NCBI RefSeq assembly: GCF_007751715.1
Contig: NZ_CP036292.1
Coordinates: 1 to 64,000 of the forward strand
DNA length: 64,000 nucleotides
From: Rosistilla oblonga
GTDB lineage: Bacteria; Planctomycetota; Planctomycetia; Pirellulales; Pirellulaceae
Reading direction: 5' to 3'
Below, piece by piece: positions 36,855 to 54,130 of this stretch. The notes below the pieces were generated by a model, which worked only from the letters and a program-made list of their open reading frames with translations, ran no database searches and had not been told where the DNA came from. Each line of letters begins with the position of its first letter. The stretch's first letter is position 1. A program made the translations under genes and the position numbers.

Positions 36855-37049
36855 ATGTCACGTTCACTATCTCGCTATTTTCTGGCCGCACTCTCGGGTA
36901 GCACCTACGTCATCCCCGTCGTCGCCGCGGCAAACACCTCCGCACCATCGGCTCAACCTCGCCCCACGGCTCAGGTAGAGATGACCGAAGAGCAGATGAT
37001 CATGTACGAGATCCGCAAACAGGTCGGCCGCGAACTAAAAGGAACCTAG
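36855..37049 (+). CDS. Small exported or membrane peptide
   Basis: 64 aa. The N-terminus (basic SRSLSRYF, then LAALSGSTYVIPVVAAANTSA) looks like a signal peptide or short membrane helix, followed by a charged tail with EMTEEQMIMYEIRKQVGREL. GGAGAG at 36841-36846, 8 nt before the ATG, is a good ribosome site. A strong terminator-like hairpin follows at 37099-37178. No family is recognised. The clear ribosome site and terminator favour a real gene. Confidence 0.6.
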   Translation: MSRSLSRYFLAALSGSTYVIPVVAAANTSAPSAQPRPTAQVEMTEEQMIMYEIRKQVGRELKGT

Positions 37050-37098
37050 TTCACTCGAACCGTCCGCTCGCGCGATCAATCTCTCCACCACGCGCCCC

Positions 37099-37178
37099 GC
37101 CCCAACAGAAAGCACCGCCACCACCCACGGCTGATGTCGCCCCACATCCGCCTTCCGGCAGCTTCTGTTGGGGCTTTT
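37099..37178 (+). terminator. Strong terminator-like hairpin after the small peptide gene
   Basis: GCCCCAACAGAAAGC (37099-37113) pairs with GCTTCTGTTGGGGC (37161-37174), 14 base pairs with one bulged A, followed by TTTT. The 47-nt loop is long. It lies between convergent genes. Confidence 0.6.
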
Positions 37179-37218
37179 CACTGCGCCTTCTTTAGCCAGC
37201 GTTCCTCGAATAAAAGGA

Positions 37219-38562: not shown

Positions 38563-38568
38563 TGTGGA

Positions 38569-38985
38569 TTACCTTTTTTTGCGAGTCAGTAGACGGACCG
38601 CCGACGGTGGCAGGTCCAGTTCATGGTGTTGTTGTGAAGTTGAGTCGAAGGATGGAATCGATAAACCGCTTGTCGCGGGCTTACCCAGTTTTGGGTCGAG
38701 GATCCAGCCGCCATCGCTGATCGATTCGGCGGAGACGAAATGTTGGGGACCGCCAGGCGGCGACAGCTGCTTGAATCGGGCTTGGCCTGCCTGGTCGCTG
38801 ATCGCAGCGGCGACGACCGGTCCCGATTCGGAATCGTGCAGCTGAACGCGAACGTTTGCCAACGGATCGCCTTGGTAACGCACGATGATCGTGGGCGACT
38901 GATTCGCCGATTCGCTGGATGAATCGCTGCATCCGACAATCGCGAGCAGCGAACAAAAAATGGACAACGAAATGGTTTTGATCAT
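38569..38985 (-). CDS. Lipoprotein, hypothetical
   Basis: 138 aa from ATG 38985. Signal sequence ending in the lipobox LAIVGC (Cys about residue 19). The mature part begins with a Ser-rich linker and then a small beta domain (PTIIVRYQGDPLANVRVQLHDSESGPVVAAAISDQAGQARF), resembling carboxypeptidase-regulatory or transthyretin-like domains common in planctomycete lipoproteins. The start overlaps the DUF1559 stop (ATGA), so it is coupled to that gene. The longer frame upstream is an overlap artefact. Confidence 0.75.
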   Translation of the reverse strand: MIKTISLSIFCSLLAIVGCSDSSSESANQSPTIIVRYQGDPLANVRVQLHDSESGPVVAAAISDQAGQARFKQLSPPGGPQHFVSAESISDGGWILDPKLGKPATSGLSIPSFDSTSQQHHELDLPPSAVRLLTRKKR

Positions 38986-40022
38986 GGCAACTGCACCACC
39001 TCGCCACCGTCCCGCGAATAGGCTGCGTGGTAGGTTGGCAGATCGATCGAATCGCCGATGAAGCGGACGCTGCCATCGAGCATCGCATGTCCAGCCACGC
39101 CGGGATGGTACGAACGGGAGCTGTAGAAACCGCGGCCGTGCATGCCGACATCGGGCAGGTCGGAGTTGGGTGACATGTAGCCGTTGATGACCGTCGCATA
39201 AGGGACGCCGCGAATCCACGACGCGCCCCGATTCCCTTGATACGAAGTGATGCTTGCCGGAACGACCGCCTGCAGATCGGGATTGGTAATCAACGCCCCG
39301 CCGCTCATAAAACCAGCGCCGCTGGGATTGCTGGAGGTGCCGCCCCAGTTGGCGATCCGACGCTGTGGACCGGTTGGCGATGGTTCGGTCTCGCCGCTGG
39401 TTTGGTCACCAAGAACGGTTTCCGCGATCAGAACCGTGTGGCTGGTGCCGTCGAGACAATCTTTGAACCCGGCCCACGAATCGGTCCAGACCATGCCGTC
39501 GGTTCGGTAGCGATCGTCGTAATGGGTGTCGGTGCCACTGCCGTAGCTGAACATATAAGTCAGCCCCGCCGTGTAGCCAGCGGAACCGTCGGCGAAGGTC
39601 GTCGCGAACTGGGGATCACCGGCGTCGCTGGGACACAAAAAGGTTGGCAGCACGCTTTCGATGGCGCCGCGGAGCACGGGATTAAACTGAGCGGCCCAGG
39701 CCGGACCGACTAACAGCGGCGATTCAAAATCGATCAGCTCCGCCAGATTCCCCTGTTCGATAAAGGGAAGCACGCGGGCTTGGACCGAATAGCTGCTCGA
39801 CCCCGTCATCGCCGGGATCACGCGATAGGTGCTCTCGTAATTGTGGGTCGCTAGAGCAAGCTGTTTTAAGTTATTGCCGCACGACATTCGCCGGGCCGCC
39901 TCGCGAGCCGATTGGACTGCCGGCAACAGCAGCGAGACTAAGATGCCGATGATCGCGATCACGACCAGCAGCTCGATCAACGTAAAGCCGCTGGTGGGAT
40001 TGGAAAGTTTAGATTTGCGCAT
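38982..40022 (-). CDS. DUF1559 protein with prepilin-type N-terminus
   Basis: 346 aa. The prepilin cleavage/methylation motif GFTLIELLVVIAIIGILVSLLLPAVQSAREAARRMSC is at residues 12-48, followed by NNLKQLALATHNYES, the DUF1559 hallmark. The C-terminal H-X9-DG motif is present (HPGVAGHAMLDGSVRFI). This huge planctomycete family is exported through type II/IV pilus-like machinery; its function is unknown. It is followed by the coupled lipoprotein gene, a recurrent arrangement in this phylum. Confidence 0.93.
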   Translation of the reverse strand: MRKSKLSNPTSGFTLIELLVVIAIIGILVSLLLPAVQSAREAARRMSCGNNLKQLALATHNYESTYRVIPAMTGSSSYSVQARVLPFIEQGNLAELIDFESPLLVGPAWAAQFNPVLRGAIESVLPTFLCPSDAGDPQFATTFADGSAGYTAGLTYMFSYGSGTDTHYDDRYRTDGMVWTDSWAGFKDCLDGTSHTVLIAETVLGDQTSGETEPSPTGPQRRIANWGGTSSNPSGAGFMSGGALITNPDLQAVVPASITSYQGNRGASWIRGVPYATVINGYMSPNSDLPDVGMHGRGFYSSRSYHPGVAGHAMLDGSVRFIGDSIDLPTYHAAYSRDGGEVVQLP

Positions 40023-40301
40023 GGGATGCTATAGGTTTTGCAGACTTCGTCGATCGAAGCCGTTTGGGAGAACGATGTGAAGTAAAGACGCCCCGCTGCG
40101 CAGGTGCAATCGATCGGGTTTGGTCGGACCGGTGACCGATCACACCACGAGCGCAGCGGGACAGATTGCGGTGCGGACACCATCCGATGCAGCAGGAGCG
40201 CAGCATCGGACAGAGGGCAACCGAAAGGAGATATCGCAAGGGATCGCCAGCAAGATTACCGCGGTGCACGTCGGGCGACGTTCGTGCAGAACCGGCTGGA
40301 C

Positions 40302-40682
40302 TTATCCGCAGACCGGTGGGCCGCGAGGTCGCGCGATCGAGAGGGTCGCCGCAACGGCAACCGCATCGAGAATAGGATCCGACGACTGAACCAATCGATC
40401 GCTCAGCAGCGACGGATCGAGGTTCCAGTTCACGCCGGATGGACTGGCTAACGACTGACAGATCGGACAATCGTCCGCATCGTGCTGGTGATGCGATTCG
40501 CCATCGCTGGTTTTTGAATCATCACCAGCGTGATGATGGCAACCATGAGAACAGACGCTCGCTGCAGCGTGATGGTGGCCATGCCCGTCGCAGGTGGCGA
40601 CATGCAGCCATGCGGGTGCGTGCCCCCAGGCAACAACAAGACACAGCAAGCTCGGTAGAATGGGTCGGAACAGCGAAGTCAT
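40302..40682 (-). CDS. His/Cys-rich exported protein
   Basis: 126 aa. Signal peptide-like start (MTSLFRPILPSLLCLVVAWGHAPAWL), then a histidine-cysteine-rich stretch CDGHGHHHAAASVCSHGCHHH and SHHQHDADDCPICQSL at about 31-82. The HDADDCPICQ pattern resembles DUF2946-type proteins near metal-transport genes. Zinc or copper binding in the periplasm is inferred from composition. It lies upstream of the DUF1559-lipoprotein-propeller genes in the same direction, 279 bp away. No Zur-like operator was recognised upstream. Confidence 0.6.
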   Translation of the reverse strand: MTSLFRPILPSLLCLVVAWGHAPAWLHVATCDGHGHHHAAASVCSHGCHHHAGDDSKTSDGESHHQHDADDCPICQSLASPSGVNWNLDPSLLSDRLVQSSDPILDAVAVAATLSIARPRGPPVCG

Positions 40683-40914
40683 GGACGACGTTCGTCTTCT
40701 TTAGTATTCGAGTTGAATTTGATCCGACCAAGGATTGATGCAAGCGGTACGGGCTGAGGTCGTAGAGGGTTCGTCGGGAAATCCGACGAATTGGAAACTT
40801 TGGCATTTTTAGCAGCATCGATTTGCTGGCATCCGCGCCGCGGGCAAAAAGCGGGATGGAGCTCACCACGCTTTTTGCCGGTGCCAGTTTTCGCGGCTTG
40901 CGATTTTCGTTCTG

Positions 40915-41391
40915 CTATTTTGTTGCTGGCAGATCGGTCGGTTCGTCCCCGGGTTTTTCTTTGATCGGTTCGATCGCGACGCCATCCTTCGAACCGGGGA
41001 TCGCTGGCATCGCGGCGGGCGGTGGAAAGGCGCTCTCGGGAATATCTTCCAGATTCTTCTTGCGGTCCTTTTTGGCTAGCAACGAATAATTGGCCCCTTC
41101 GGTTCCCTGCAGATCGTAACGGCCCCAGTACTGTTGGGAGCTGGGGGTGTAGTAGTAGACATAACGCGGTTGCGATGGATACGAGATGCAGTAGTGGTAG
41201 CTGTAGGTCGGCGAACTCACCACCGGCCGGTAGTAGTAGCGGGTGTAGTGATACGAGCGGGATGGTTGGTAGGACCAACTGCTGTAGTACTGTCGGCCAC
41301 CATAACCAGCTTCCGCTTGGTCGACAGCCACTTGCGATAGCATTGCGACAGCCAATCCGACGAGGGCCATTTTTCCAACTTGCGACAACAT
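40915..41391 (-). CDS. Tyr-rich secreted protein
   Basis: 158 aa. Signal peptide ending near QAEA (residue 28), then a region very rich in Tyr, Ser and Arg (YGGRQYYSSWSYQPSRSYHYTRYYYRPV), then a hydrophilic Lys/Pro-rich tail (KKDRKKNLEDIPESAFPPPAAMPAIPG). No enzymatic domain. Such low-complexity Tyr-rich exported proteins could be matrix or cell-wall components. It has no known function. Confidence 0.65.
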   Translation of the reverse strand: MLSQVGKMALVGLAVAMLSQVAVDQAEAGYGGRQYYSSWSYQPSRSYHYTRYYYRPVVSSPTYSYHYCISYPSQPRYVYYYTPSSQQYWGRYDLQGTEGANYSLLAKKDRKKNLEDIPESAFPPPAAMPAIPGSKDGVAIEPIKEKPGDEPTDLPATK

Positions 41392-41894
41392 CGGTTTTCC
41401 TCCGGTTTAAGGTTCTGATTCGTAGAAGGTATGCAACGTTTGGGTTTCTCGATTCCCACTGCTCGCGAGCCACTTACGCTCGCTAAATACCAGATGCAGG
41501 ATTCGCTTCCCGACCGGACACCAAATCGAAAAATAGTTGGAGACCAGGAATGAAGCCCCCTGGTGGTTTCAAAAAGGGTAGCCGCAGAACGGGTTCCGCG
41601 TCCGCGCGATGGCGGGATTGAACCGCATTGGAATTGCCGATCTTCCTTCAGCGCGCAGCCCGTTGGGCACGCGGTTAAACGCGGCAAGCGGGTTGGTGAT
41701 CGGATTGGGGATGGCTCCGACCGTCTGTCCCAATCGCGCCGATTCAATTCGGATTCCGTCGCGATGGGACGCACACCTGCAGGGACAGGTTCTTTGAAAC
41801 TACGGGAATTGGGAACAATATCCTTGCGAGTTTCATCCCCCAAACGACCATGGTACGATTGTCCAGATCTACCAGTTCCGTTAGGAGGACTATA
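41392..41894. other. Intergenic region upstream of the three-gene nuclease/FtsK operon
   Basis: 503 bp, divergent between the Tyr-rich gene (-) and the operon (+). No gene was found. It should contain the operon promoter; the ribosome site TTAGGAGGAC (41881-41890) precedes the first ATG at 41895. A T-arm-like string near 41615 did not fold into a tRNA. Confidence 0.5.
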
Positions 41895-42764
41895 ATGCCC
41901 GAGTCTGCGGTTTTATCGAGCGGCGGCTTACAGAACCTAGAGGCGCCCAATCAAGCGTTGGTGCATGCATTGGCAGCAGAAGCTGCGCCGGTGACAGCGG
42001 CCGATCTGTGCCGAAAGCTCCCCAAGAGCGATCAAAACGATCCTCAAACCATTCAGACGCGGTTGGAGTCGCTGGTCCAACAGCAGGTGCTCCATCGCTT
42101 CGCCCCCTATCGCGGCAAAGCCGATCGATTTTGGAATCGATCGCTGGATCAGTATGCGACGCTGGTGATCACGTCCGAAGCGGAAAAGCAGGTCGGCACG
42201 AAGAGCGATCTCAGCAGTCGATGTCGGGCGCGACTGAAGGATATGAGCGTCAAGCAGCTTGGCGATTTCATCAATCAATTGGCCGCGTCGGGCCAATTGC
42301 ACGTGGGACGGTTCTTGGGAAGCCAGGCCCTGCGGTATTCGGCCTGTCCGATCGGGCCCCAAGCGATGCTGGAAAATGCGATCGCGCAGATCGCCAAACG
42401 GTGTTCGATCAGCCCCGACGAAGTGCGGGCATCGATCGTGCCAACCGATCGAACCACGCCCGGGGCAACGACGCCCATCGAACCCAACGTGTCCGACGAA
42501 ACACTTGTGATGCAAATGATCGGTCAGATGTCCCCCAATCCATCGACCGCCGGAGCGATCGTTTCGATTGCCGAACTGCGTCGCGCGATGGAGTTCAAAT
42601 TGGTCGGCGAGTCGTTCGACGCGGCAATCCGACAACTGGAAGCCCACGCTCAAGTCGATCTGACAACGCATCCCGATCCGGGGTCGCTAAGCCCCGAGGA
42701 CCGCGAGGCTCGCAAGCTTCGTGGAGATGGAAAAGTTTATGACATGCTAGTCGTCAGGAGGTAA
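41895..42764 (+). CDS. Winged-helix-like DNA-binding protein, first gene of a novel three-gene operon
   Basis: 289 aa from ATG 41895, preceded by AGGAGG at the right spacing. There is no match I can name. The sequence shows several winged-helix-like units: residues about 15-65 (ALVHALAAEAAPVTAADLCRKL...RLESLVQQQVLHRF), 100-150 (KQLGDFINQLAASGQLHVGRFLG), and 195-265 (SIAELRRAMEF...AIRQLEAHAQVDL). It lacks a catalytic motif. It lies 3 nt upstream of the ATPase gene, whose ribosome site is inside its last codons. A DNA-binding or adaptor role in the complex is inferred. Confidence 0.75.
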   Translation: MPESAVLSSGGLQNLEAPNQALVHALAAEAAPVTAADLCRKLPKSDQNDPQTIQTRLESLVQQQVLHRFAPYRGKADRFWNRSLDQYATLVITSEAEKQVGTKSDLSSRCRARLKDMSVKQLGDFINQLAASGQLHVGRFLGSQALRYSACPIGPQAMLENAIAQIAKRCSISPDEVRASIVPTDRTTPGATTPIEPNVSDETLVMQMIGQMSPNPSTAGAIVSIAELRRAMEFKLVGESFDAAIRQLEAHAQVDLTTHPDPGSLSPEDREARKLRGDGKVYDMLVVRR

Positions 42765-42767
42765 CGT

Positions 42768-44789
42768 ATGGCTGCCAGAAAAATGAAAATCGATCCGTCG
42801 ATGCCCAATCCGTTTCTTGGAAGCATCGTTCCCGACGCGTGGCGTGGGGCATCAGCCGATGTGCCGGAGATTCATGCCGACGTCTTTTCCAAATGTCTGG
42901 ACGCCGTGCGGATCGTACGCAACGAACAACGGAGCGCGTCGGTGCTGATTCACGGGGAACAGGGAAGCGGAAAGACGCATCTACTGGCCCGCTTGCACGA
43001 ACACCTCACCGACACAAAGAAGAAGTATCCCGACGTCGAAGATGATTGGCAGATCTTTGTCTACCTGCGGATGCGAACCGCCTCGGGGCGGATCTGGCGA
43101 AAGATCCGTTCTGAATTAGTGACCGATCTGATGCGTCCGATGCCCGACGGGCTCACGCAATTGGATCATGTGCTCGCGAAACATCTGGCCAAACGATTTG
43201 ATGGCAGCGCGGACCTCGCATTGTGGTGGAATCACTTTCGCCAATCGCGGCTGGAAGAATTGGTCGATCACTGGTACGACCTCGCGGCTCAGATCAGTCT
43301 TCGCGACGATTTTGCACACGTGATCGAATGGTTTATTCGACAACAACATCGACGTCACGTCCGCGCGTACCTCGGCGGCGGACTGGTCAACGAAGACGGG
43401 TTCCGAGCGCTGTTTGGCAACGTCGATCCCAGCCACTACGCTCCCGACAACGAAGACGACGCGTTTGAAGCGGTCAAATCGCTTTGCCATATCGCCGGCT
43501 CCGAAATTCCGATCGTGTTTTGTTTCGATCAAATCGAAGCGATCGAGGTCGAAGATTCCACGCGGCGGCCGGTTTGGTACCTCGCCCGCGCTATCGCCGA
43601 CCTCACCGACGAAACAACCGTCGCGGTGATCTCCTGCGTGTTGGCGAACTTCGCCGACAACGAAGTGCGTGACCAGGACCGGCCAAGAATGATCACCGCG
43701 GGCCAAACGGCGCTGCAAAAACTGGATTCGTCACAGATGCGGCAGATCGTTCGTTCGCGAGTCGCAGCGTTGTCGGCGACCGCCAAAGCTGCTGGCGATG
43801 ATCCACGCTGGCCGTTCGGCGACAATGAAACGCTCTTTGCACAGCGGTTGACGCCGCGCGAACTGCTGCACCTAGCGGCGATTCGCTTCGATGAACTAGC
43901 CGGTAAAAAGCCGATCCCACCATCGCCAACCGGTCCGGAAGATCAATTGGCCGAGGTCTTCGATCAACGAATCGAACAGGCGATCCGCACGCAGACTCCC
44001 GAAGCGACAAACGAATTGATCGCGGCGACGCTTCCCGGCTTGTTGCCGATCGTAGAACCGGGTTGGACCACGGAATATCCCAACGGCCCGCACAATGTCC
44101 AGAACGATATCGAAATGGTACTGGTCGGTCCCGCAGGAGAAGCACGGGTCGGCGTGGCGCTCTGCAACCAGCCGAACATGACCAGCTTGGCGGCGCAATT
44201 ACGCCGCTTAATCCAAAATCGCGAGGCGTTTGGATTGCACAAACTGGTGCTGATTCGCGATGGGCGATTGCCGATCTCCCCCGGGGCCCAAACCACACGT
44301 GATCGTTTGGATCAATTGACCAAAGAGGAGGGCGTGCTACTGCGTCCGACCCGCGAGATCATGGCGGTGCTCGACGCGGTCCGGTCGCTGATCGCCGATG
44401 CGACCTGTGGCGATCTGACGCTCGATGGGCAAGTCGTTGGGGCGACGACGGTCCGGCAGTGGTTGTCCGATAACCTCGACACCGTCGTCCGTGAATGGAT
44501 CGACGAATTCCGCACTCCACTTCGTCCAGGCTGGATCGACGACGACGCCACGCCGGACGACAACGATGTCGATGCGGTCCTCGAATGCCTCGCATCCACT
44601 CCGGTCGCGTTGGTCGACGCAATCGCTGACTCCACCGGTATCGATCGAGAGCGAGTGAAAGAACTCGCCGGCCTTGCGGGAGACCGGATTGGAGTGATCC
44701 ACGGTGACGCCGCGGTTGTCTTTCGAGTGGACGACCCCGTGGCATCGGACAATGAAAAGGATTCGACCCAACAGAGCGATACCCATTGA
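42768..44789 (+). CDS. P-loop ATPase (AAA/KAP/Orc-like), second gene of the novel operon
   Basis: 673 aa. Starts with NPFLGSIVPDAWRG, then Walker A GEQGSGKT (residues 63-70) and a Walker B-type strand IPIVFCFDQIEAIE (247-260) about 185 residues later, a wide spacing as in KAP, STAND or Orc1/Cdc6-like ATPases. A helical stretch with AVISCVLANFADNEV follows, and a C-terminal region (about 430-560) with predicted alpha/beta character (VGVALCNQPNMTSLAAQLRRLI, HKLVLIRDGRL) whose active-site residues I cannot assign. The last 80 residues could be a winged helix (VALVDAIADSTGIDRERVKELAGLAGDRIG). No signal peptide. The third gene follows with a 1-nt gap. Confidence 0.8.
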   Translation: MAARKMKIDPSMPNPFLGSIVPDAWRGASADVPEIHADVFSKCLDAVRIVRNEQRSASVLIHGEQGSGKTHLLARLHEHLTDTKKKYPDVEDDWQIFVYLRMRTASGRIWRKIRSELVTDLMRPMPDGLTQLDHVLAKHLAKRFDGSADLALWWNHFRQSRLEELVDHWYDLAAQISLRDDFAHVIEWFIRQQHRRHVRAYLGGGLVNEDGFRALFGNVDPSHYAPDNEDDAFEAVKSLCHIAGSEIPIVFCFDQIEAIEVEDSTRRPVWYLARAIADLTDETTVAVISCVLANFADNEVRDQDRPRMITAGQTALQKLDSSQMRQIVRSRVAALSATAKAAGDDPRWPFGDNETLFAQRLTPRELLHLAAIRFDELAGKKPIPPSPTGPEDQLAEVFDQRIEQAIRTQTPEATNELIAATLPGLLPIVEPGWTTEYPNGPHNVQNDIEMVLVGPAGEARVGVALCNQPNMTSLAAQLRRLIQNREAFGLHKLVLIRDGRLPISPGAQTTRDRLDQLTKEEGVLLRPTREIMAVLDAVRSLIADATCGDLTLDGQVVGATTVRQWLSDNLDTVVREWIDEFRTPLRPGWIDDDATPDDNDVDAVLECLASTPVALVDAIADSTGIDRERVKELAGLAGDRIGVIHGDAAVVFRVDDPVASDNEKDSTQQSDTH

Positions 44790-44790
44790 G

Positions 44791-46716
44791 ATGAATCAGA
44801 AACTATCTAACCGTTTGGATTCGCAAGAATCATCGTCGCGCGGAGTCGAGATTTCGGTCAGCGACGTGCGCCAACAGATCTATCTCGCCGATCCGTCCAG
44901 TGGAACCGGCAGTCCTTCATGTTGTGAACTGGGGACGGCGTTTCATCGACTGATCGCATCGCTGCTCAACAGCAGCAATGCGGAACTATCGACGATCTTC
45001 AGTGGTGCATCGGTCGACGACTGGGCAGCTGAACTGCGCGACTTCGGTTACCGTCGCGAGCTCGGCCCATTTTTGATCGGCAATGCGGCGGCGCTGCATG
45101 GACGTGGCGACGCGGTGATGAACCTTTGGGTTGCAGTGAACGAAGCGACTCTCTGGCTGGCCCAGCTGTTTTGGGATCACCGACAACGCCAGCTTCGCGA
45201 CGGCAAACGTTTTAATCCCAGCGAATTGGCGAATTGGTTTCAATCCGAGGTGCCTCTGCGTTTGGAATTGACCGATCCATCCTGGACGCAGCCCGTGGTA
45301 CTGACGGGCGTTGCCGATTCAGTACTCTCGCTGCCGGGCGGACGCCGCTGCGTGATCGAATACAAGCTTGGCAAGACCGCGCCCGAAGCCGATCTCTGCC
45401 AAACCGCGCTCTACCATCAAATGCTCAATGACGGCGGCAACAACTCGATCGCCGTGATCGGTTTTCTGCCCGAACGGTCGGAGCGTTTGATCGAAGGCAA
45501 CCAAATCGGCGAACTCCAACAGCGATTACAAACGTTGATCGGCAAGCTAGCGGGAGTCGATCGTCCGCGCGTCGCCCCGCAGCCGCAGCGCAAACCTACA
45601 GTCGCTGCCGAGCAAGTCACCCCCAAGCCGAAATCGACGACCGAGGTCGACGTTCAATCGCTTGCCAAACAGTTGAAGGCTGCGTTAAACGAAGCCGACT
45701 GCGAATCGACCTTCGTGGGTGAACCAATCGTTGGGCCGACCTTTATTCGATTCACCGTCAATCCGGCGCGCGGCGTCCGGCCGGATCGTTATCCTAGAAA
45801 CGCAGAACTGTTGCAGATTCGGCTGCGATGCCAACGCCCACCGGTGATACAAACCGGCGCCTCGATCACGATCGACGTGCAGCGTCCCGACCGCCAGTTT
45901 GTGGCATGGGACGATATCGATCTGCCCGCTTCGGATCCGCTGCATGGATGTGCCAAGGTGCTCATTGGCGTCGGCTTGGACGGCAAGGTGCGAACCGCCG
46001 ACTTGGCCGATTCCACCTGCTCACATCTGTTGGTCGCTGGCGTCTCTGGCAGTGGCAAGAGCGAGTGGTTGCGGACAGCGGTCGCCGGGTTGATCGCAAC
46101 CAACACGCCCGAACAACTGCAGCTGGTCGCCATCGATCCCAAACGCGTCGCGTTCCACGACCTGCAAGGTTCACCCTACCTACGCTGCCCCGTCGTTTTC
46201 CCTGGTGATGCCGACACCGACATAATCTCGGTGTTGGACGATTTGATCGAAGAGATGGAAGACCGTTACGCATCGTTGGACGGATGTGCGTCGCTTGCGG
46301 AGTGGATCGACCGAAGCGGCAAACCCGTTCCCCGCATCATCTGCGTTTGCGATGAGTACGCGGATATCATGCTCGCATCGACCAAGCAGCGGAGAGATAT
46401 CGAAACGCGGATCACGCGGTTGGGCTCCAAGGGGCGGGCCTGTGGAATCCATCTGATCCTGGCAACGCAACAGCCGAGTCGGAAGACGATCACCGGGGCG
46501 ATTCAAACCAATCTGCCCGGCCGCGTTGGACTGACGATGACCTCAGCAACTGAAAGCCGCATGTTGTTCGAACAATCGGGTGCCGAAGATTTGCTGATGA
46601 AAGGAGACCTACTGTACAAGGACATCGGCGCCCCGCACCGCTACCAAGCGGTCTACCTCTCCGATACCCAGCGTCGTGCGATCTATTCTGCTTCGCCGGC
46701 GAGCGAACGAGTCTAG
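44791..46716 (+). CDS. PD-(D/E)XK (Cas4/RecB-like) nuclease fused to FtsK/SpoIIIE motor, third gene of the novel operon
   Basis: 641 aa from ATG 44791. Residues 45-215 show the Cas4/RecB-type nuclease order: GTAFHRL with H52, GVAD with D176, IEYKLGK with E190 and K192, and QTALYHQM with Q204 and Y208. There is no C-terminal cysteine cluster, so no Fe-S site. After a Pro-rich linker (259-285), residues 286-375 resemble the FtsK alpha domain. The motor has Walker A GVSGSGKS (417-424), IDPKRV (449-453), Walker B ICVCDEYAD (517-525), and the FtsK block GRACGIHLILATQQPS, SATESRMLFEQSGAEDLL. There are no TM helices and no gamma domain, so this is not chromosome-segregating FtsK. Probably a DNA-translocating nuclease. 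Confidence 0.88.
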   Translation: MNQKLSNRLDSQESSSRGVEISVSDVRQQIYLADPSSGTGSPSCCELGTAFHRLIASLLNSSNAELSTIFSGASVDDWAAELRDFGYRRELGPFLIGNAAALHGRGDAVMNLWVAVNEATLWLAQLFWDHRQRQLRDGKRFNPSELANWFQSEVPLRLELTDPSWTQPVVLTGVADSVLSLPGGRRCVIEYKLGKTAPEADLCQTALYHQMLNDGGNNSIAVIGFLPERSERLIEGNQIGELQQRLQTLIGKLAGVDRPRVAPQPQRKPTVAAEQVTPKPKSTTEVDVQSLAKQLKAALNEADCESTFVGEPIVGPTFIRFTVNPARGVRPDRYPRNAELLQIRLRCQRPPVIQTGASITIDVQRPDRQFVAWDDIDLPASDPLHGCAKVLIGVGLDGKVRTADLADSTCSHLLVAGVSGSGKSEWLRTAVAGLIATNTPEQLQLVAIDPKRVAFHDLQGSPYLRCPVVFPGDADTDIISVLDDLIEEMEDRYASLDGCASLAEWIDRSGKPVPRIICVCDEYADIMLASTKQRRDIETRITRLGSKGRACGIHLILATQQPSRKTITGAIQTNLPGRVGLTMTSATESRMLFEQSGAEDLLMKGDLLYKDIGAPHRYQAVYLSDTQRRAIYSASPASERV

Positions 46717-46750
46717 TCCGCGGCAGCCTATAAAGGCGATCACCACGCAC

Positions 46751-46990
46751 AAAGCCGCGGTAGCGGCGGCCGCATATAGCATGTGACGCGAGCCACTGGT
46801 CTGGGATGGAGACGGTTTCGCGCGAGCCCCGGTTAGGGGCGACAGAGCCGTAGTTGCTGTCGCCCCTGGCGGGGCTTTAGTTCGATTGTTGGTTGTGTTC
46901 CTGCGGCTTGCGCCGCAGGCTTTATGCGATCGCTGCATCCGCAGCTTTTAGAACCGATGGCGATCGATTGGTTTCAGCGCCGAACCTTGT
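46751..46990 (+). repeat. Dispersed structured repeat, copy A
   Basis: Begins AAAGCCGCGGTAGCGGC and ends after GGCGATCGATTGGTTTCAGCGC. It contains a long GC hairpin with T-run (46826-46878) and the hairpin CCTGCGGC-TTGC-GCCGCAGG at 46900-46919. It shares most of its length with copies B and C. It starts 34 bp past the stop of the nuclease-FtsK gene, in the same orientation. Confidence 0.85.
46826..46878 (+). terminator. Terminator-like hairpin in repeat copy A
   Basis: Inner stem AGGGGCGACAG (46835-46845) with CTGTCGCCCCT (46857-46867), 11 bp perfect; outer GCCCC (46826-46830) with GGGGC (46871-46875), followed by TTT. It sits about 110 bp past the end of the three-gene operon. Confidence 0.65.
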
Positions 46991-47030
46991 GCTGGCCAGG
47001 GGAACAGTCTCCGCGACTATCCATTTGGAA

Positions 47031-47229
47031 CGAAGCCGCGGTAGCGGCGGCCGCGTATAGCATGTGACGCGAGCCACAGGTCTGGGATGGATACGGTTTC
47101 GCGCGAGCCCTGGTAAGGGCGACAGATGCGTAGTTGTTGTCGCACCTACGGGGCTTTGGTTCGATTGTTGGTTGTGTTCCTGCGGCTTGCGCCGCAGGCT
47201 TTATGCGATCGCTGCATCCGCAGCTTCGT
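47031..47229 (+). repeat. Dispersed structured repeat, copy B
   Basis: Begins CGAAGCCGCGGTAGCGGC. Closely similar to A, 40 bp after it, so A and B form a tandem pair. The long hairpin has decayed (GGTAAGGGCGACAG with TTGTCGCACCTAC), while the CCTGCGGC/GCCGCAGG hairpin is intact. Confidence 0.82.
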
Positions 47230-47466
47230 TTGGAGGTGATCATTGCGGGAACTTTTCCTTGTCAAACGTTTGGTGCCGATCGGTAGGGGCGACGGTGCGA
47301 GTGTAGCTAGGCGTTGTGCTGGTGCGGGTGTTTCCGTTCTATCTCCTCTTCTACCTTCTCTTCTATCTCACACATGACCATCTACCGTCGTTTGATTTCT
47401 CTATTGCGGCTTGGTTGCGATGGTGGAGAGGCTGCTTTTATTGATGGCCTCGGCCGATCGCGGTTG

Positions 47467-48915
47467 CTATGACTTACGCACTGCGCGGGCGATTCCTAGG
47501 CCGATGATCGCTGCTTGGAAGGCTGCCCAGAGGATCAAGACCGTCCACCAATAAGGGACCGCTGATGCGTCGGTGGGAGCAAACGTCCATCCGACCACGA
47601 CGCTGATGGATCCCGGCAGGGCGGTGGCGAACAGGACGATGAATGTCTTGCCGATCCCTTTGATCGCCGCTCCCAAAACTAGGCTGCTGATGTCGACGAT
47701 GCCATAGACCGCGGCGTACGCTAACAACTGCGCCGCGAGCGGCTGAAGTTCCTGTCGTTGATCGGCTGGCAGACCGCCCAGTGTAATTTGCAGCAGTGCG
47801 TCGGGAAAGCTCCACAATGTGGCGGCCAGGCTCAGCGCAACCGCGGCGCCGACGATCGCGCTGCGGCGGATGACCTGCAGGGCGGGCGCGATTCCGGCTG
47901 ACGCGTACGCTTGGCCGGTCAAGACGGTAACGGCGGTGGCGAGTCCGATCGCGGGGATCGACAACAATTGATAAAGGCTGAGAGCCGCCGACGTCGCAGC
48001 GAGTCCTTGCACCGACGCCGCTCCAATCACCAACAGGATGAAGCTGAACAAACTGGAGCGGACCAGTTGCTGAATCCCCAGGGTCGAGCCGGGGACGATG
48101 ATCTCGCGGATCAGTTTTAGGTCGGGCCGCCAAGCCTGCGGCCGATGACGACGAAACGATTGCAGACGCAACAACAGCACGGCAAAGATCGCGACTTTGC
48201 ACCACATCGCCACCGCCGTCGCTAATGCCGCTCCGAAAACTCCCATCGCTGGCAGGCCAATGCCACCGAAGATGAACCAATAGTCGAGCAGGACATTCAA
48301 GACAGCCGACGCGATGTTGGCTCGCAAGATCGGTCGGGTCACTCGGCGGCCGACGAAAAACGCAGTCAGTCCGGCTTCCAACATCGACGCGGGGGCGACT
48401 AACAGCAGAGTCCGGAAGTAGCGAGCCTCTTGCTGGGCGAGATCGTGGGAATGTCCAAAGGCCGCGAAGATCGCGGGAGCTACCCATCCGATCAGTGCCA
48501 ACAGCGGAATGAACAGCAGCGTCAACCACAGGCATTGCCAAACGAGCGACCAGACGCGGCCGATCATCGCGCCGCGGCGGCGTTTGTTTCCCATCGCCAT
48601 CGCGACCAGTGGAGTCAGGAATCCCATCGCCGTGACGGGAATACAGACCACCGCCCAATAAAGATTGCCGGCCGAGACCGACGCCGCCGCCGATGTCGGT
48701 CCGTACCACATCAAAAGCGTCCGGTCGGTGAACAGCGTGATCGAGAAACAGCCAACGGTCGCGGCCAACGGCAATGCGACGGCCAACAACGCTCGATATC
48801 CAAAGGGATCGGGTCGCGTTTTTCGAGAGTTCAACAGCATCCAATGGTTTCGTTCGGGAAATCGTTCGGTTTGGTTCACTTTGTGCAGCATGCAATTGGA
48901 CGAGCGGTTTGCCAC
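47467..48915 (-). CDS. MATE-family multidrug/toxin efflux transporter
   Basis: 482 aa with 12 hydrophobic segments, as in MATE exporters that use H+ or Na+ gradients. Family features: YRALLAVALPLAATVGCFSITLFTDRTLLMWYG at the first helix, PTSAAASVSAGNLYWAVVCIPVTAMGFLTPLVAMAMGNKRRR, and the second-half repeat KLIREIIVPGSTLGIQQLVRSSLFSFILLVIGAASVQGLAATSAALSLYQLLSIPAIGLATAVTVLTGQAYASAG. The start is uncertain: GTG at 48915 or an ATG at 48840 (MLLNSRKTRPDPFGYRAL); the later one trims 25 hydrophilic residues. The substrate is unknown. Confidence 0.85.
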   Translation of the reverse strand: MANRSSNCMLHKVNQTERFPERNHWMLLNSRKTRPDPFGYRALLAVALPLAATVGCFSITLFTDRTLLMWYGPTSAAASVSAGNLYWAVVCIPVTAMGFLTPLVAMAMGNKRRRGAMIGRVWSLVWQCLWLTLLFIPLLALIGWVAPAIFAAFGHSHDLAQQEARYFRTLLLVAPASMLEAGLTAFFVGRRVTRPILRANIASAVLNVLLDYWFIFGGIGLPAMGVFGAALATAVAMWCKVAIFAVLLLRLQSFRRHRPQAWRPDLKLIREIIVPGSTLGIQQLVRSSLFSFILLVIGAASVQGLAATSAALSLYQLLSIPAIGLATAVTVLTGQAYASAGIAPALQVIRRSAIVGAAVALSLAATLWSFPDALLQITLGGLPADQRQELQPLAAQLLAYAAVYGIVDISSLVLGAAIKGIGKTFIVLFATALPGSISVVVGWTFAPTDASAVPYWWTVLILWAAFQAAIIGLGIARAVRKS

Positions 48916-49342
48916 TGCGGCGGTTCGATTCGACGATCCGCGGTGGCGAAGCCGACGTTTTCGTCCGCGCCGCTCGCGCGTTTACTACGCCGTTTGCATG
49001 TCCCCAAACCGACATGCGATCCGCGTGCCATCACCATGAACGATTGGAAACCAACCGATGTCCGCAGTCACTGCCTCCACCCGACCCTCGAACCTTTCGA
49101 TTTTGATCCGTTTTACCCGTCGCATCGGGCTGCGATTTATCGGCACGATCGACCGCGTCGAACGGCAAATGCGGCGTTCGGGGGCTGTCGTCTCTAGCTC
49201 TGCTGGCCAGCCGATCGTGCCGATCGCCAAACGCTAGATCGCTCCACTGGCACACTTGTTGCTCTACGGGATCGCTCGACGGAACGTTTTCCAACACGAA
49301 GGATCGTTTTACCAAATACTAGGGCAACAGGAGTCGGTGGCG
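48916..49342. other. Divergent intergenic region
   Basis: 427 bp between the MATE gene (-) and the first glycosyltransferase (+). Overlapping short frames exist on both strands but none looks like a protein. It must contain the promoter of the glycosyltransferase operon. The AGGAG at about 49328 is the ribosome site for the ATG at 49343. Confidence 0.4.
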
Positions 49343-50413
49343 ATGAAGATCGGAATCATTGGGCATTTGAAGTTCCCCATGGCGAAACCCTTCGCAGGCG
49401 GTCTGGAAGTGTTCACACATGGTTTTGTCGACGCGTTGGTCGCACGTGGTCACGACGTGACGTTGTTTGCCGCGGGCGATTCGGACCCGCGGTTGCCGCT
49501 GGAACCGATTCTTCCCCACGCAACGATTCCCGAATCGCTGCGACGACTGGGGCGAGTCCACGACGGTTGGATCGACGCCACCGAAGATGAAGCCTACGCA
49601 TCGTTGATGACTCGCTTGGCCGCGGGCGATTTCGACCTGATCCACAACCATTCGCTGAACCCGATCCCGCTGCGATTCGCCAGCACGCTCCCCACGCAAA
49701 TGATCACCACGCTGCATGCCCCCGTGCTGCCACGCGTCGATGCGGAATTGACGTCGCGGCCTTGGCAACAGTGTGGGCGTTTCGTCAACATCTCTCACGC
49801 CAACGCGATGGCTTGGGGACGGTTGGTCGGCGATCAAACGGTCATCTACAACGGCATCGACACCGATTTTTGGAAGGGCCGCACGACGGCGGAACAGCCG
49901 CGAGCCGTCTGGTTTGGGCGAATCGTTCCGGAAAAGGGAACACATCTGGCGATCGCTGCAGCCCGTCGCGCCGGCTTGCCGATCGACGTCGTCGGTCCCG
50001 TCTCCGACCAAGCCTACTTCGATGAATTTGTCGCTCCCTCACTGGGCGCCGATTGCTCTTACTTAGGCCACAAGACGCACGAACAGCTGAGCGAGATCAT
50101 CAGCAGCGCAGCCGTCGCGATCATCACTCCCTGTTGGGACGAACCCTTTGGCCTCGTCGTTGCCGAAGCGCTCGCGTGCGGAACTCCGGTTGCCGCCTTC
50201 GCTCGCGGAGCCCTCCCCGAGATCATCGCTCCGTCGGTGGGACGCCTGGCTTATCCCGGCGACGTCGACGACTTGGCACTAGCGATTGGTGAGGCGATCG
50301 AACTGAACGGCGAAGTCTGCCGTCGTGTCGCTCAAGAACGTTACAGCATGGAACGTATGATGAACGATTACGAAGCGTTGTACCGACGCGTTCAGTTGGG
50401 TGTGGCGGTATGA
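49343..50413 (+). CDS. GT4-family glycosyltransferase
   Basis: 356 aa, GT-B fold. N-terminal domain has GIIGHLKFPMAKPFAGGLEVFTHGFVDALVARGHDVTLFAAGDSD, with the PFAGGLE loop typical of GT4. The C-terminal domain has WFGRIVPEKGTHLAIAAARR and the nucleotide-binding E-x7-E motif EPFGLVVAEALACGTPV. The ATG at 49343 has a ribosome site; the frame upstream to 49256 is weaker. The stop overlaps the next gene (ATGA). With the next two genes it forms a small glycosylation operon; the acceptor is unknown. Confidence 0.9.
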   Translation: MKIGIIGHLKFPMAKPFAGGLEVFTHGFVDALVARGHDVTLFAAGDSDPRLPLEPILPHATIPESLRRLGRVHDGWIDATEDEAYASLMTRLAAGDFDLIHNHSLNPIPLRFASTLPTQMITTLHAPVLPRVDAELTSRPWQQCGRFVNISHANAMAWGRLVGDQTVIYNGIDTDFWKGRTTAEQPRAVWFGRIVPEKGTHLAIAAARRAGLPIDVVGPVSDQAYFDEFVAPSLGADCSYLGHKTHEQLSEIISSAAVAIITPCWDEPFGLVVAEALACGTPVAAFARGALPEIIAPSVGRLAYPGDVDDLALAIGEAIELNGEVCRRVAQERYSMERMMNDYEALYRRVQLGVAV

Positions 50414-51540
50414 TTGGTCCAACGATAGGATTCTACGTCCACTATCATGGGCTGGGGCATAAGCACCGCACCGAGGCGCTCCTGCAGCATTTGCAGATCC
50501 CGGCGAGTGTCGTCACCAGCCGGATCGACACGCTCGACTGGAGTGGCCCCACGTTGCAGCAGGTCGTTGGTATCGCATGTGATATCGACGATGTCAGTCC
50601 CCGCGGGCTCCCTTATGCTCGCGACGTCTATTCGTTGCACTACGCGCCGCTGTGGTGTGAACCGATCACGCGTCGCGTGGCGCAGTACACCGCTTGGCTC
50701 GACGAAGCGAGGCCCGATGTGATGGTGGTCGACGTCTCCGCCGAGATCTCGATGCTAACGCGGTTGGCATCGATCCCGCAGGTTGTGATGCGGCAGCATG
50801 GCGACCGAAACGACCCTGCGCACCAAGACGCCTATCGCGCGGCGCACTCGTTGTTGGCGCCATTCCCCAAATCGATGGAAGATGAACAAACACCGGGCTG
50901 GGTGCAAACCAAGACGATTTATCTGGACGGATTCTGCCGCCAGCAAACCGCACAAAAGAACAGTCAAAACAGTCAAATCGCGTCGCTAGCGGCAGGAGAG
51001 TCTTCAGACGCTCCGACGATCGTCGTCATGTTTGGCCGCGGCGGCAATGCGGATGTCCACGATCGACTTCGGGCGGCGGCACGGCGAGTTCCCGAATATC
51101 GATGGCGAGTCGTCGGCATCGCAGCTCCTGAATCGGCAGCAATGCCCGACAACCTCCAATACGTCGGTTGGGTCGACGATCCGATGCCGTATGTCAGGGA
51201 GGCCGATATTGTCGTCACCGCGGCGGGGCACAATAGCGTGATGGAAATCGGGCACGCTCGCCGGCGGCTGATCGCGATCGCTCAACAGCGGCCGTTCGAC
51301 GAACAGATTCGCAAAGCGGCGATCCTGGACCGGGAGGGACTGGCCGTCGGGTTGTCACAGTGGCCCGACACCGACCAATGGCCCGAACTGCTTGAGCGGG
51401 CTGGGCGTCTCGACCCGCGGCGATGGGACGCCATCTTTGCCGCCGATGGTGCGGCGCAAGCGGCGGCTCACCTGCAACGGGTCGCAACCTGGTCTCGAAA
51501 TCAACGTGAATCCAACCAACAGGCGGTCCCATGCAGTTGA
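50410..51540 (+). CDS. GT-B glycosyltransferase (MurG/GT28-like)
   Basis: 376 aa. The N-terminus has FYVHYHGLGHKHRTEALLQHL, the glycine-rich GHG motif of UDP-sugar transferases such as MurG. C-terminal domain has TIVVMFGRGGNADVHDRLRAAARR and DIVVTAAGHNSVMEIGHARRRLIAIAQQRPFDEQIRKA, matching the GT28 C-terminal nucleotide-sugar site. There is no TM segment. It starts in a 4-nt overlap with the preceding gene and its end overlaps the next by 10 nt. Not murG itself: gene context and sequence differ. Confidence 0.82.
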   Translation: MIGPTIGFYVHYHGLGHKHRTEALLQHLQIPASVVTSRIDTLDWSGPTLQQVVGIACDIDDVSPRGLPYARDVYSLHYAPLWCEPITRRVAQYTAWLDEARPDVMVVDVSAEISMLTRLASIPQVVMRQHGDRNDPAHQDAYRAAHSLLAPFPKSMEDEQTPGWVQTKTIYLDGFCRQQTAQKNSQNSQIASLAAGESSDAPTIVVMFGRGGNADVHDRLRAAARRVPEYRWRVVGIAAPESAAMPDNLQYVGWVDDPMPYVREADIVVTAAGHNSVMEIGHARRRLIAIAQQRPFDEQIRKAAILDREGLAVGLSQWPDTDQWPELLERAGRLDPRRWDAIFAADGAAQAAAHLQRVATWSRNQRESNQQAVPCS

Positions 51541-52475
51541 GTGTCTTAACGATCGTCCGCGGTCGCGAGAAACATCTCTATAACCAGTGGCTTGGCTTGA
51601 TGCGCTCCTCTCTGTTGCCAGCTCAATGGATCATCGTGGGGATGGATCAGGATGTCGCGTTGCCTCCCGAAGTGCTCAGCCATCGCAGGAGGGTTCAGTC
51701 GGCGGCGGCCACGCACAACGAAGCTTCAGCCGGCACGGCGACGCAAACGATCGAAACGAAGATCGACGTGCGAACCGCGCGAGTCGATGGGGATGGAGAG
51801 CAATTGCCATTGGCGGAGGCGAGGAACCGGGCGGCGGAACTTTGCCAAACCGATGCGATGATCTTTCTGGATGTCGATTGCATTCCGGCTCCTTCGATGC
51901 TGGAAACGTTTCGCCAGGCGCTGCGAGAGGATCCGCGATTGTGGATGGGGAATGTACGGTATCTGCCAGCGGGTGCGGCGAGCGACGGGTGGCAGATGGA
52001 CGACTTGGATCGCTTGGCCGTCGACCATCCATTGCAACCGCGGCTGATGCCGGGGGAGCGACACAAGTCGCAGCGTTATGAGTTGTTTTGGTCTCTCTGT
52101 TTCGCCGCCACCAAGCAGACCTTTGATCGCATCGGCGGATTCGATCCAACGTTTGATGGTTATGGAGGCGAGGATACCGATTTCGCGTTCGCCGCCCGTC
52201 GGCAAAAGGTCCCGTTTGGATTTGTCGCTGCGACCGCGTATCACCAACACCATCCGGTCTGCAAGCCGCCGCTGAATCACTTCCACGCGATCGTTCGCAA
52301 TGCGAAGCGATTCCAGCAGAAATGGGGCGTCTGGCCGATGGAATCGTGGCTGCACGGGTTCGCCCAGCGGGGACTTGTCGAGTTTCGTCCCACCGAGGAT
52401 CTATTGAGAATCGTCCGCGAACCGAGCCCGGAAGAGGTGCGGCAGGCGCGGACAAAGACAGCCGCCGGATTCTAG
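51531..52475 (+). CDS. GT-A glycosyltransferase (GT2/galactosyltransferase-like)
   Basis: 314 aa. The metal-binding acidic motif LDVDCIP lies near residue 120. The catalytic region GGFDPTFDGYGGEDTDFAFAAR near residue 210 resembles the C-terminal galactosyltransferase domain of chondroitin synthase-type enzymes. Conserved LAEARNRAAELCQTDAMIFLDVD separates it from GT4 enzymes. It overlaps the preceding gene by 10 nt. Products and acceptor unknown. Confidence 0.83.
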   Translation: MQLSVLTIVRGREKHLYNQWLGLMRSSLLPAQWIIVGMDQDVALPPEVLSHRRRVQSAAATHNEASAGTATQTIETKIDVRTARVDGDGEQLPLAEARNRAAELCQTDAMIFLDVDCIPAPSMLETFRQALREDPRLWMGNVRYLPAGAASDGWQMDDLDRLAVDHPLQPRLMPGERHKSQRYELFWSLCFAATKQTFDRIGGFDPTFDGYGGEDTDFAFAARRQKVPFGFVAATAYHQHHPVCKPPLNHFHAIVRNAKRFQQKWGVWPMESWLHGFAQRGLVEFRPTEDLLRIVREPSPEEVRQARTKTAAGF

Positions 52476-52574
52476 CCTCGTCGCACACCGCACCCACTGC
52501 CGCATACGGTATCCGGCGACGGGGCTTTGAAATATCGCCAGACTTTTGCCACCCAATACAGGAGACGAACAACC

Positions 52575-53171
52575 GTGTTTGAAAAATGGATCGACGCGTC
52601 GCCGACCCAACTGGGAATGATTCTGCTGTCGACAGTTTGCGTCTATGCCGCGATCTTGCTCTACACACGTGTCAGTGGGTTACGCAGTTTCTCCAAAATG
52701 TCCGCCGCTGATTTTGCCATGACGATCGCGATCGGATCGCTATTCGGCGCGACGATCTCCGCTCCCTCGCCGACGCTGTTGATGGGAGGCTTTGCGCTGC
52801 TGTGCGTCTTCGTCGGCCAAACCGTTGTCGCTTGGTTACGTCGTAAGTCGCCAACGGTTTGCAAACTCGTCGACAACCAGCCGATGTTGCTGATGGCCGG
52901 CAGCGAGATCTTGCGGGGGAACTTGCGTCGAGCGAATCTGACCGAAGCCGACTTGCGCGGCAAACTCCGCCAGTCGAATGTCTATCGGTACGACGATGTG
53001 TTGGCTGTCGTTTTTGAAACCACCGGCGACGTTTCGGTCTTGCAACGCGACGACCACACCACGCCGCCAGATCAAGAAATTTTTGAAGGCGTTATCGACA
53101 GCCATCGCCTGGAGCTAAAGAGCCGTCGGCCCCAACCGAGTGATCGATCCACAGACCCGTATCCACGATGA
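52575..53171 (+). CDS. DUF421 (YetF-like) membrane protein
   Basis: 198 aa from GTG 52575, with GGAG about 10 nt upstream. Three N-terminal TM segments (about 13-31, 42-60, 66-85) with the DUF421 pattern LYTRVSGLRSFSKMSAADFAMTIAIGSLFGATI, then a cytoplasmic domain containing CKLVDNQPMLLMAGSEILRGNLRRANLTEADLRGKLRQSNVYRYDDVLAVVFETTGDVSVL, typical of this family. Members are related to YetF; molecular function is unknown. It lies downstream of the glycosyltransferase operon and is followed directly by repeat copy C, whose first hairpin may end transcription. Confidence 0.85.
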   Translation: MFEKWIDASPTQLGMILLSTVCVYAAILLYTRVSGLRSFSKMSAADFAMTIAIGSLFGATISAPSPTLLMGGFALLCVFVGQTVVAWLRRKSPTVCKLVDNQPMLLMAGSEILRGNLRRANLTEADLRGKLRQSNVYRYDDVLAVVFETTGDVSVLQRDDHTTPPDQEIFEGVIDSHRLELKSRRPQPSDRSTDPYPR

Positions 53172-53179
53172 TCCATCGG

Positions 53180-54055: not shown

Positions 54056-54130
54056 GGATTTCCTCGAACGGTTATAGGCGTCTGCCCCGTCAAACGACCT
54101 GTTGTCATTAATGATGACGATCGATTTCGA

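What the first reader, a model, noticed from the sequence alone, without database searches (positions are those of the whole stretch)
41895..46716. Three-gene operon with a Cas4/RecB-like nuclease fused to an FtsK motor: candidate undescribed DNA-targeting system
Seen directly: three co-directional genes with 3-nt and 1-nt gaps, each with its own clear start. They encode a multi-winged-helix-like protein (289 aa), a P-loop ATPase (673 aa, Walker A GEQGSGKT, Walker B VFCFDQIEAI), and a 641-aa protein in which a complete PD-(D/E)XK active site (H52, D176, E190-x-K192, Q204-x3-Y208) precedes a full FtsK/SpoIIIE alpha-beta motor. Known: Cas4/RecB-type nucleases cut DNA ends, and FtsK motors pump double-stranded DNA. 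Inferred: the complex recognises DNA through the first protein, is loaded or gated by the ATPase, and translocates while degrading. I recall no named defence system (RM, BREX, DISARM, Wadjet, Zorya, Dnd/Dpt) with this composition. A housekeeping DNA-processing role is the main alternative.
Basis: partly seen in the sequence, partly recalled or inferred. Interest (0 to 1): 0.88.

Follow-up and report, generated by a model that had tools for sequence, protein, structure and literature searches.

The report
Predicted FtsK-capture DNA restriction operon
Three side-by-side bacterial genes encode a DNA-binding protein, an Orc/Cdc6-like ATPase and a DNA pump fused to a DNA-cutting enzyme; they form a conserved, patchily distributed unit that matches a class predicted in 2024 to destroy invading DNA, so this is a clean and testable example of something already described on paper, not an unknown system.

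Summary
Three tightly packed genes (41895-46716, +) encode (1) a triple winged-helix protein, (2) an Orc/Cdc6-clade AAA+ ATPase carrying a degenerate (catalytically dead) PD-(D/E)XK domain and a C-terminal winged helix, and (3) a RecB/Cas4-type PD-(D/E)XK nuclease fused to FtsK-alpha and the FtsK motor. The unit is accessory: present in 2 of 3 species of the genus, with an empty site in the third, and in about 3% of sampled planctomycete genomes.

The domain list matches the Orc/CDC6 class of 'HerA/FtsK capture systems', predicted in 2024 as counter-invader systems (PMC10853773). I found no experimental test of that class.

Most likely mechanism (inferred): the winged-helix protein and Orc-like ring select and load on foreign DNA, the FtsK motor pumps it, and the attached nuclease cuts it. 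Most neighbours are ordinary genes, so a repair role is not excluded.

The parts
41895..42764 (+). Gene 1: 289-aa triple winged-helix (wHTH) protein, the fastest-evolving of the three
   Evidence: ORF; AF2 model pLDDT 88 with three wHTH units; VIA-align Z about 10-12 to wHTH proteins for residues 13-88 and about 10 for residues 83-152; dN/dS 0.24
41943..42134 (+). wHTH unit 1 (aa 17-80)
   Evidence: secondary structure of the AF2 model; VIA-align
42144..42341 (+). wHTH unit 2 (aa 84-149)
   Evidence: MecI/BlaI/PerR-like
42495..42755 (+). wHTH unit 3 (aa 201-287)
   Evidence: secondary structure only; the part of gene 1 most often matched in distant loci
42768..44789 (+). Gene 2: 673-aa Orc/Cdc6-clade AAA+ ATPase with degenerate REase domain and C-terminal wHTH
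   Evidence: Pfam AAA_16/AAA_22 in 26 of 28 homologues; AF2 model pLDDT 83.5; Foldseek/VIA top hits ORC, Cdc6, TnsC
42876..43967 (+). AAA+ core (aa 37-400)
   Evidence: Walker A/B invariant
43998..44408 (+). Degenerate PD-(D/E)XK-like domain (iREase; aa 411-547), no (D/E)xK motif
   Evidence: H-E-E-E-H-E order in the model; third strand reads G-V-x-x-C-N instead of (D/E)xK; restriction enzyme EcoT38I at rank 50 of Foldseek, aligned region not told
44559..44726 (+). C-terminal wHTH of gene 2 (aa 598-653)
   Evidence: H-H-H-E-E in the model
44791..46716 (+). Gene 3: 641-aa nuclease fused to FtsK motor
   Evidence: Pfam
44848..45585 (+). RecB/AddB/Cas4-type PD-(D/E)XK nuclease domain (aa 20-265), intact active site
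   Evidence: PDDEXK_1 in 18/22 homologues, Cas_Cas4 in 4/22; profile match to AdnAB, DNA2 and a Cas4-type chain in the PDB; catalytic residues conserved
45631..45846 (+). FtsK-alpha domain (aa 281-352), weak in this protein, clear in relatives
   Evidence: E 0.0055 here, found in 16/21 homologues, best 5e-12
45955..46674 (+). FtsK/HerA translocase motor (aa 389-628); no FtsK-gamma domain found
   Evidence: PF01580 1.1e-31 and no gamma-domain hit
41552..53165 (.). Variable block holding the operon, a MATE transporter, three glycosyltransferases and a DUF421 gene; absent as a unit in sister species G002
   Evidence: flanks 37000-41551 and 53166-55540 adjoin with 79 bp between them in G002; gene identities

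Best explanation
The operon is a member of the Orc/CDC6 class of 'HerA/FtsK capture systems': a three-protein DNA-targeting machine that most likely restricts incoming or replicating foreign DNA. Shown here: domain make-up, conserved active sites, strict co-occurrence, accessory distribution. Inferred: (1) the triple-wHTH protein and the C-terminal wHTH of the ATPase find the target site or structure; (2) the Orc/Cdc6/TnsC-like AAA+ ATPase assembles on DNA and recruits or opens the third protein, its dead REase domain serving as a DNA- or protein-binding scaffold; (3) the third protein forms an FtsK-type hexamer that pumps double-stranded DNA, and the RecB/Cas4-type nuclease on its N-terminus cuts the DNA as it is fed. 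With no modification gene in the operon, self/non-self choice would have to come from DNA ends, replication or transfer intermediates, or a sequence feature, not from a methyl or phosphorothioate mark made by the operon itself.
For: Domain architecture matches every core component of the published description (text; tests). Gene order is conserved in 28 of 28 readable loci in Planctomycetota, Myxococcota, Desulfobacterota, Acidobacteriota, Verrucomicrobiota, Pseudomonadota and Tectomicrobia-labelled genomes, plus one probably mis-binned 'Arcobacter' contig; genes 2 and 3 are fused in Minicystis rosea. Catalytic and motor residues are invariant. Presence is patchy: 0 of 34 other genera sampled in the family, 13 of 392 phylum genomes by profile, with an empty site in a sister species and no shared flanking genes among the roughly 70% identical copies outside the genus. 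The host has a separate cellular FtsK-type protein and an AddB-type nuclease candidate with or without the operon.
Against: Most copies have ordinary neighbours; of about 22 loci only Rhodopirellula sallentina (Schlafen-type helicase and a restriction-like neighbour) and Minicystis (D12 adenine methylase) show clear defence-type neighbours. No copy was found in plasmids, phages or viral contigs, though planctomycete elements are probably poorly sampled there. Relation of the triple-wHTH protein to DndG was not recovered by structure search. No functional data exist here.
Confidence: 0.62

Rival explanations
1. An accessory DNA-end processing or recombination machine, a bacterial analogue of HerA-NurA or AddAB: the Orc-like ATPase and wHTH protein load the FtsK-nuclease at breaks or stalled forks and it resects DNA for repair.
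For: The nuclease domain is closest in the PDB to AdnAB and DNA2, both end-resecting enzymes; HerA-NurA, also a HerA/FtsK-type pump plus nuclease, does end resection in archaea (PMC12977600, abstract); most neighbours are ordinary genes; distant relatives with a nuclease but no FtsK sit beside cell-division or other ordinary genes in Synergistota and Caldisericota.
Against: Very patchy presence, including absence in a congener; AddB-type nucleases are present regardless of the operon, so it does not replace the standard pathway; even in Synergistota only 25 of 81 genomes carry the ATPase.
Confidence: 0.22
2. A plasmid/chromosome segregation or transfer device, or part of a mobile element, in which the FtsK motor moves DNA for the benefit of the element itself.
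For: FtsK-alpha plus motor is the make-up of cellular FtsK; the ATPase fold is shared with the transposon ATPase TnsC; the operon lies in a variable block with dispersed repeats.
Against: No transposase, recombinase, relaxase or terminal repeats were recognised as part of the operon in the loci inspected; no plasmid or phage carriers; a strictly conserved nuclease site is unexpected for a segregation device.
Confidence: 0.1
3. A previously undescribed defence system.
For: No PADLOC, NCBIfam or Pfam model covers the whole system; the main text of the 2024 paper does not mention planctomycetes.
Against: All core components and their arrangement were described in 2024.
Confidence: 0.06

Closest known systems
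'HerA/FtsK capture' systems, Orc/CDC6 class (NAR 2024 gkad1213, PMC10853773)
   Same: Orc/CDC6 AAA+ with an inactive REase between the AAA+ core and C-terminal wHTH; active REase; HerA/FtsK with FtsK-alpha; separate multi-wHTH protein; components fused or split
   Different: Whether the RecB/Cas4-type nuclease is one of the paper's two named active-REase families could not be checked (supplement not available); neighbourhoods here are mostly not visibly mobile
SspFGH / DndFGH (DptFGH) restriction modules
   Same: Three genes: ATPase, DNA-binding protein, and a protein ending in a FtsK/HerA motor; best PADLOC hit of gene 3 is SspH (4.1e-41), in the motor region only
   Different: Gene 3 is 641 aa, not about 1700; no phosphorothioate modification genes in the operon and no DndC in the genome; no SspF, SspG or DndG match for genes 1-2 beyond a weak P-loop hit
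DUF4297-HerA and other nuclease-HerA defence pairs (PMC11291478)
   Same: Nuclease coupled to a HerA/FtsK-family hexamer acting on dsDNA
   Different: There the nuclease is a separate DUF4297 protein in a two-component system, with no Orc-like ATPase or wHTH protein in the abstract read
Archaeal HerA-NurA end-resection complex (PMC12977600)
   Same: dsDNA pump plus nuclease
   Different: Unrelated nuclease and no Orc-like ATPase (own knowledge); repair, not defence
BREX (BrxC)
   Same: BrxC is also an ORC/Cdc6-clade ATPase and appears among the top Foldseek hits
   Different: No PglZ, PglX or BrxA/B in the operon

Membership tests
HerA/FtsK capture system, Orc/CDC6 class | Orc/CDC6-family AAA+ ATPase | tested here: met
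   VIA-align top rows ORC/Cdc6/TnsC, Z 14-16; Foldseek top ORC and BrxC
HerA/FtsK capture system, Orc/CDC6 class | Inactive REase between the AAA+ core and the C-terminal wHTH | tested here: met
   AF2 model: alpha/beta domain 411-547 with REase-like element order, wHTH 598-653; no (D/E)xK in 28 homologues. Fold assigned from element order and one weak Foldseek hit, not from a domain-only search
HerA/FtsK capture system, Orc/CDC6 class | Active REase (PD-(D/E)XK) | tested here: met
   PDDEXK_1 above cut-off; active-site residues 26/26, E190 as E or D
HerA/FtsK capture system, Orc/CDC6 class | Active REase is one of the two families named in the paper | not testable with these tools
HerA/FtsK capture system, Orc/CDC6 class | HerA/FtsK motor, one subset with FtsK-alpha | tested here: met
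   PF01580 in 21/21, FtsK_alpha in 16/21 homologues
[quoted passage not shown]
   three wHTH units; highest dN/dS of the three
HerA/FtsK capture system, Orc/CDC6 class | The multi-wHTH protein is related to DndG/SspB/FokI | tested here: inconclusive
   not among listed Foldseek/VIA rows
HerA/FtsK capture system, Orc/CDC6 class | Counter-invader function | not testable with these tools
   needs experiments; it is a prediction in the defining paper too
DndFGH / SspFGH | DndH/SspH of about 1700 aa with the full N-terminal domain set | tested here: not met
   gene 3 is 641 aa and matches only SspH 1469-1757
DndFGH / SspFGH | Linked phosphorothioate modification | tested here: not met
   no DndC in 7 host genomes; none beside the operon; SspBCD not searched for on its own
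BREX | BrxC plus PglZ plus PglX | tested here: not met
   BrxC only weak on the P-loop, no PglZ or PglX in the operon

The most novel reading that the evidence does not exclude
An FtsK-RecB nuclease loaded by an Orc-like ring that degrades foreign DNA with no modification partner, recognising DNA ends or transfer intermediates: a RecBCD-like restriction machine built on a double-strand pump, with a related nuclease-only form serving another, perhaps housekeeping, role in Synergistota and Caldisericota.
Probability: 0.25. Interest if true: 0.65.

Novelty: new member of a known kind. Interest (0 to 1): 0.42.

Why it matters
The Orc/CDC6 'HerA/FtsK capture' class is a prediction for which I found no experimental test in the held literature. 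This locus is a compact complete example (three genes, 4.8 kb, all active sites intact, split into three separate polypeptides), spread over many phyla, with a natural empty site in a sister species. That makes it a practical choice for a first test of whether an FtsK pump can drive restriction without a DNA-modification mark.

Tried and rejected
Housekeeping FtsK: rejected, the host has another FtsK-type gene (907 aa) and no gamma domain was found in gene 3. Housekeeping at a fixed locus in the family: rejected. Substitute for missing AddAB/RecBCD: rejected, an AddB-type protein is present with and without the operon. Phosphorothioate-linked DndFGH/SspFGH: not supported. Defence-island enrichment: not supported, only about 2 of 22 loci have clear defence-type neighbours; no background rate was measured, and the PADLOC hits to DpdF in the flanks fit a plain RecQ helicase in L052 by sequence and are discounted. 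Carriage by plasmids or phages: none found. Structure search did not list DndG for gene 1; that absence is not evidence either way.

Full report
OBSERVATION. The ATPase gene occurs once in a 7.25-Mb single-contig genome. A sister species (G001) has the same three genes at 76/91/86% protein identity with dN/dS of 0.24, 0.10 and 0.10, so all three are maintained as proteins and the first evolves fastest.

DOMAINS. Gene 3: Pfam FtsK_SpoIIIE 1.1e-31. The N-terminal 270 aa match PDDEXK_1 at 8.8e-6, above the curated cut-off; 18 of 22 homologues match it and 4 match Cas4. A profile of this domain finds AdnAB, DNA2 and a Cas4-type chain in the PDB. In 26 homologues H52, D176, K192, Q204 and Y208 never vary, E190 is E or D, and the motor's K423, E522, R549 and Q560 never vary where readable. 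FtsK-alpha is weak in the window protein (0.0055) but present in 16 of 21 relatives. No FtsK-gamma was found, so classical KOPS-guided segregation is unlikely (general knowledge of FtsK).

Gene 2: the AF2 model (28-sequence alignment, pLDDT 83.5) shows an AAA+ core, an alpha/beta domain at 411-547 with the element order of a PD-(D/E)XK fold, and a C-terminal winged helix. VIA-align places the AAA+ core with ORC, Cdc6 and TnsC at Z 14-16. The alpha/beta domain lacks the (D/E)xK motif in all 28 homologues, so it is read as an inactive REase. That fold call rests on element order and a weak Foldseek row for EcoT38I and would gain from a domain-only search. Gene 1: AF2 model (pLDDT 88) with three winged-helix units; units 1 and 2 match known wHTH proteins at Z about 10-12.

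CONSERVATION OF THE UNIT. A scan of one genome for each of 84,980 species with the ATPase alignment and a profile search of 392 planctomycete genomes gave loci read. In every locus of this clade that can be read past the ATPase (28 loci besides the window; some cut by contig ends, one frameshifted, one with gene 3 fragmented) genes 1, 2 and 3 occur in the same order and orientation, in Planctomycetota, Myxococcota, Desulfobacterota, Acidobacteriota, Verrucomicrobiota, Pseudomonadota and Tectomicrobia-labelled genomes. Genes 2 and 3 are fused in Minicystis rosea. One 'Arcobacter' MAG contig has 68% GC and is probably mis-binned. The ATPase tree has two main clades, each mixing Planctomycetota with other phyla. 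More distant relatives keep genes 1-2 but vary the effector: nuclease alone (Caldisericota, Synergistota), or ATPase and FtsK fused with no nuclease (L026/L027).

DISTRIBUTION AND CONTEXT. In the genus 2 of 3 species have it; 0 of 34 other sampled genera of the family and 1 of 23 genomes of the order outside the family match; other Pirellulaceae (Rhodopirellula sallentina, Aporhodopirellula) do carry it. 13 of 392 phylum genomes match the profile at E<=1e-10. In the third congener (G002) the flanks 37000-41551 and 53166-55540 adjoin with 79 bp between them, so an 11.6-kb block holding the operon, a MATE transporter, three glycosyltransferases and a DUF421 gene is absent. In G001 the block keeps its right flank but the left flank lies elsewhere. 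Dispersed repeats of about 250 bp lie at 46749-47276 and 53182-53431.

Flanking genes are not shared among the roughly 70% identical copies in other genera (the one pseudopilin-like match is to a family that is multi-copy in planctomycetes, own knowledge). Flanks are mostly ordinary genes; 2 of about 22 loci show clear defence-type neighbours. No relative was found in plasmids, phages or viral contigs. The host has a separate FtsK-type protein and an AddB-type nuclease whether or not the operon is present. No DndC was found in seven carriers.

COMPARISON WITH WHAT IS KNOWN. The 2024 NAR paper PMC10853773 describes 'HerA/FtsK capture' neighbourhoods with an Orc/CDC6 ATPase, an inactive REase inserted between the AAA+ core and the C-terminal wHTH, an active REase, a HerA/FtsK (one set with FtsK-alpha) and a wHTH, and in a subset a separate 2-4 wHTH protein. 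The window operon meets each feature that could be tested, apart from the DndG relationship, which is inconclusive. The paper predicts a counter-invader role; the searches in the held literature turned up no experimental test, and the library omits most subscription journals and preprints. SspFGH and DndFGH work in a similar way (three genes, ATPase + DNA binder + FtsK-ended protein; PMC8092258), but membership fails on the size and domain set of the H subunit and on the absence of phosphorothioate genes.

MECHANISM (inferred). Winged helices of genes 1 and 2 choose the site; the Orc/TnsC-like ring loads; the FtsK hexamer of gene 3 pumps dsDNA; the fused RecB/Cas4-type nuclease cuts. The invariant Walker B D-Q-x-E of the ATPase, with Q where Orc-type ATPases usually have E (own knowledge), suggests slow or regulated hydrolysis. 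Without a modification gene, discrimination must rest on DNA ends, structure or sequence. The chief rival is accessory end processing for repair.

VERDICT. Observation correct in every particular checked; interpretation right about parts and plausible about function, wrong about being undescribed. New member of a known, apparently untested kind.

Noticed in passing
window 41552-53165: An 11.6-kb block (operon, MATE transporter, three glycosyltransferases, DUF421) is missing as a unit in a congener, with its flanks 79 bp apart (L112); in another congener the left flank is at a different place.
   Followed up: yes
window 46749-46997, 47030-47276, 53182-53431: Dispersed repeats of about 250 bp, 71-91% alike within the window; BLAST hits of the 53.18-53.38 kb copy occur at many places on both strands in congeners, and one copy lies at the right edge of the variable block.
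   Followed up: partly
L096 8184-11568; L079 8214-12347: Synergistota carry genes 1-2 followed by a RecB-type nuclease without an FtsK motor; in L096 next to cell-wall/division genes and in both next to PilM-like genes (by eye). 25 of 81 genomes of the phylum have the ATPase.
   Followed up: partly
L075 8315-11698; L093 3426-6885; L072 3-3266: Caldisericota have the same nuclease-only form (wHTH, ATPase, nuclease of 262-275 aa), in L075 and L093 next to a nicotinamidase-like gene (by eye); possibly a core function there.
   Followed up: no
L027 12188-16008; L026 7264-10332: Related operon in which the ATPase and FtsK are fused (about 1020 aa) and the nuclease is missing; in L027 a protein-kinase-like gene (10891-12120, by eye) follows.
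   Followed up: no
L109 4153-9279: 1708-aa protein with the ATPase, two stretches matching the nuclease profile and a weak motor match in one chain.
   Followed up: no
L078, L080, L081, L084, L086-L090, L092, L095, L097, L099-L101: Many filamentous and other cyanobacteria carry an 800-aa protein whose middle matches the Orc-like ATPase of gene 2 with no gene 1 or 3 match nearby.
   Followed up: no
L064: Contig labelled Arcobacter has 68% GC, far from that genus, so the taxonomic label is probably a binning error.
   Followed up: yes
L046 13511-18272: In Rhodopirellula sallentina the operon is followed by a Schlafen-group helicase protein and an 804-aa protein that looks HsdR-like by eye (no Pfam hit), the most defence-like neighbourhood seen.
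   Followed up: partly
G000:C1:765040-765579 (minus strand): A second FtsK-domain ORF of 1347 aa in the host genome, besides the 907-aa FtsK-type gene (outside the window).
   Followed up: no
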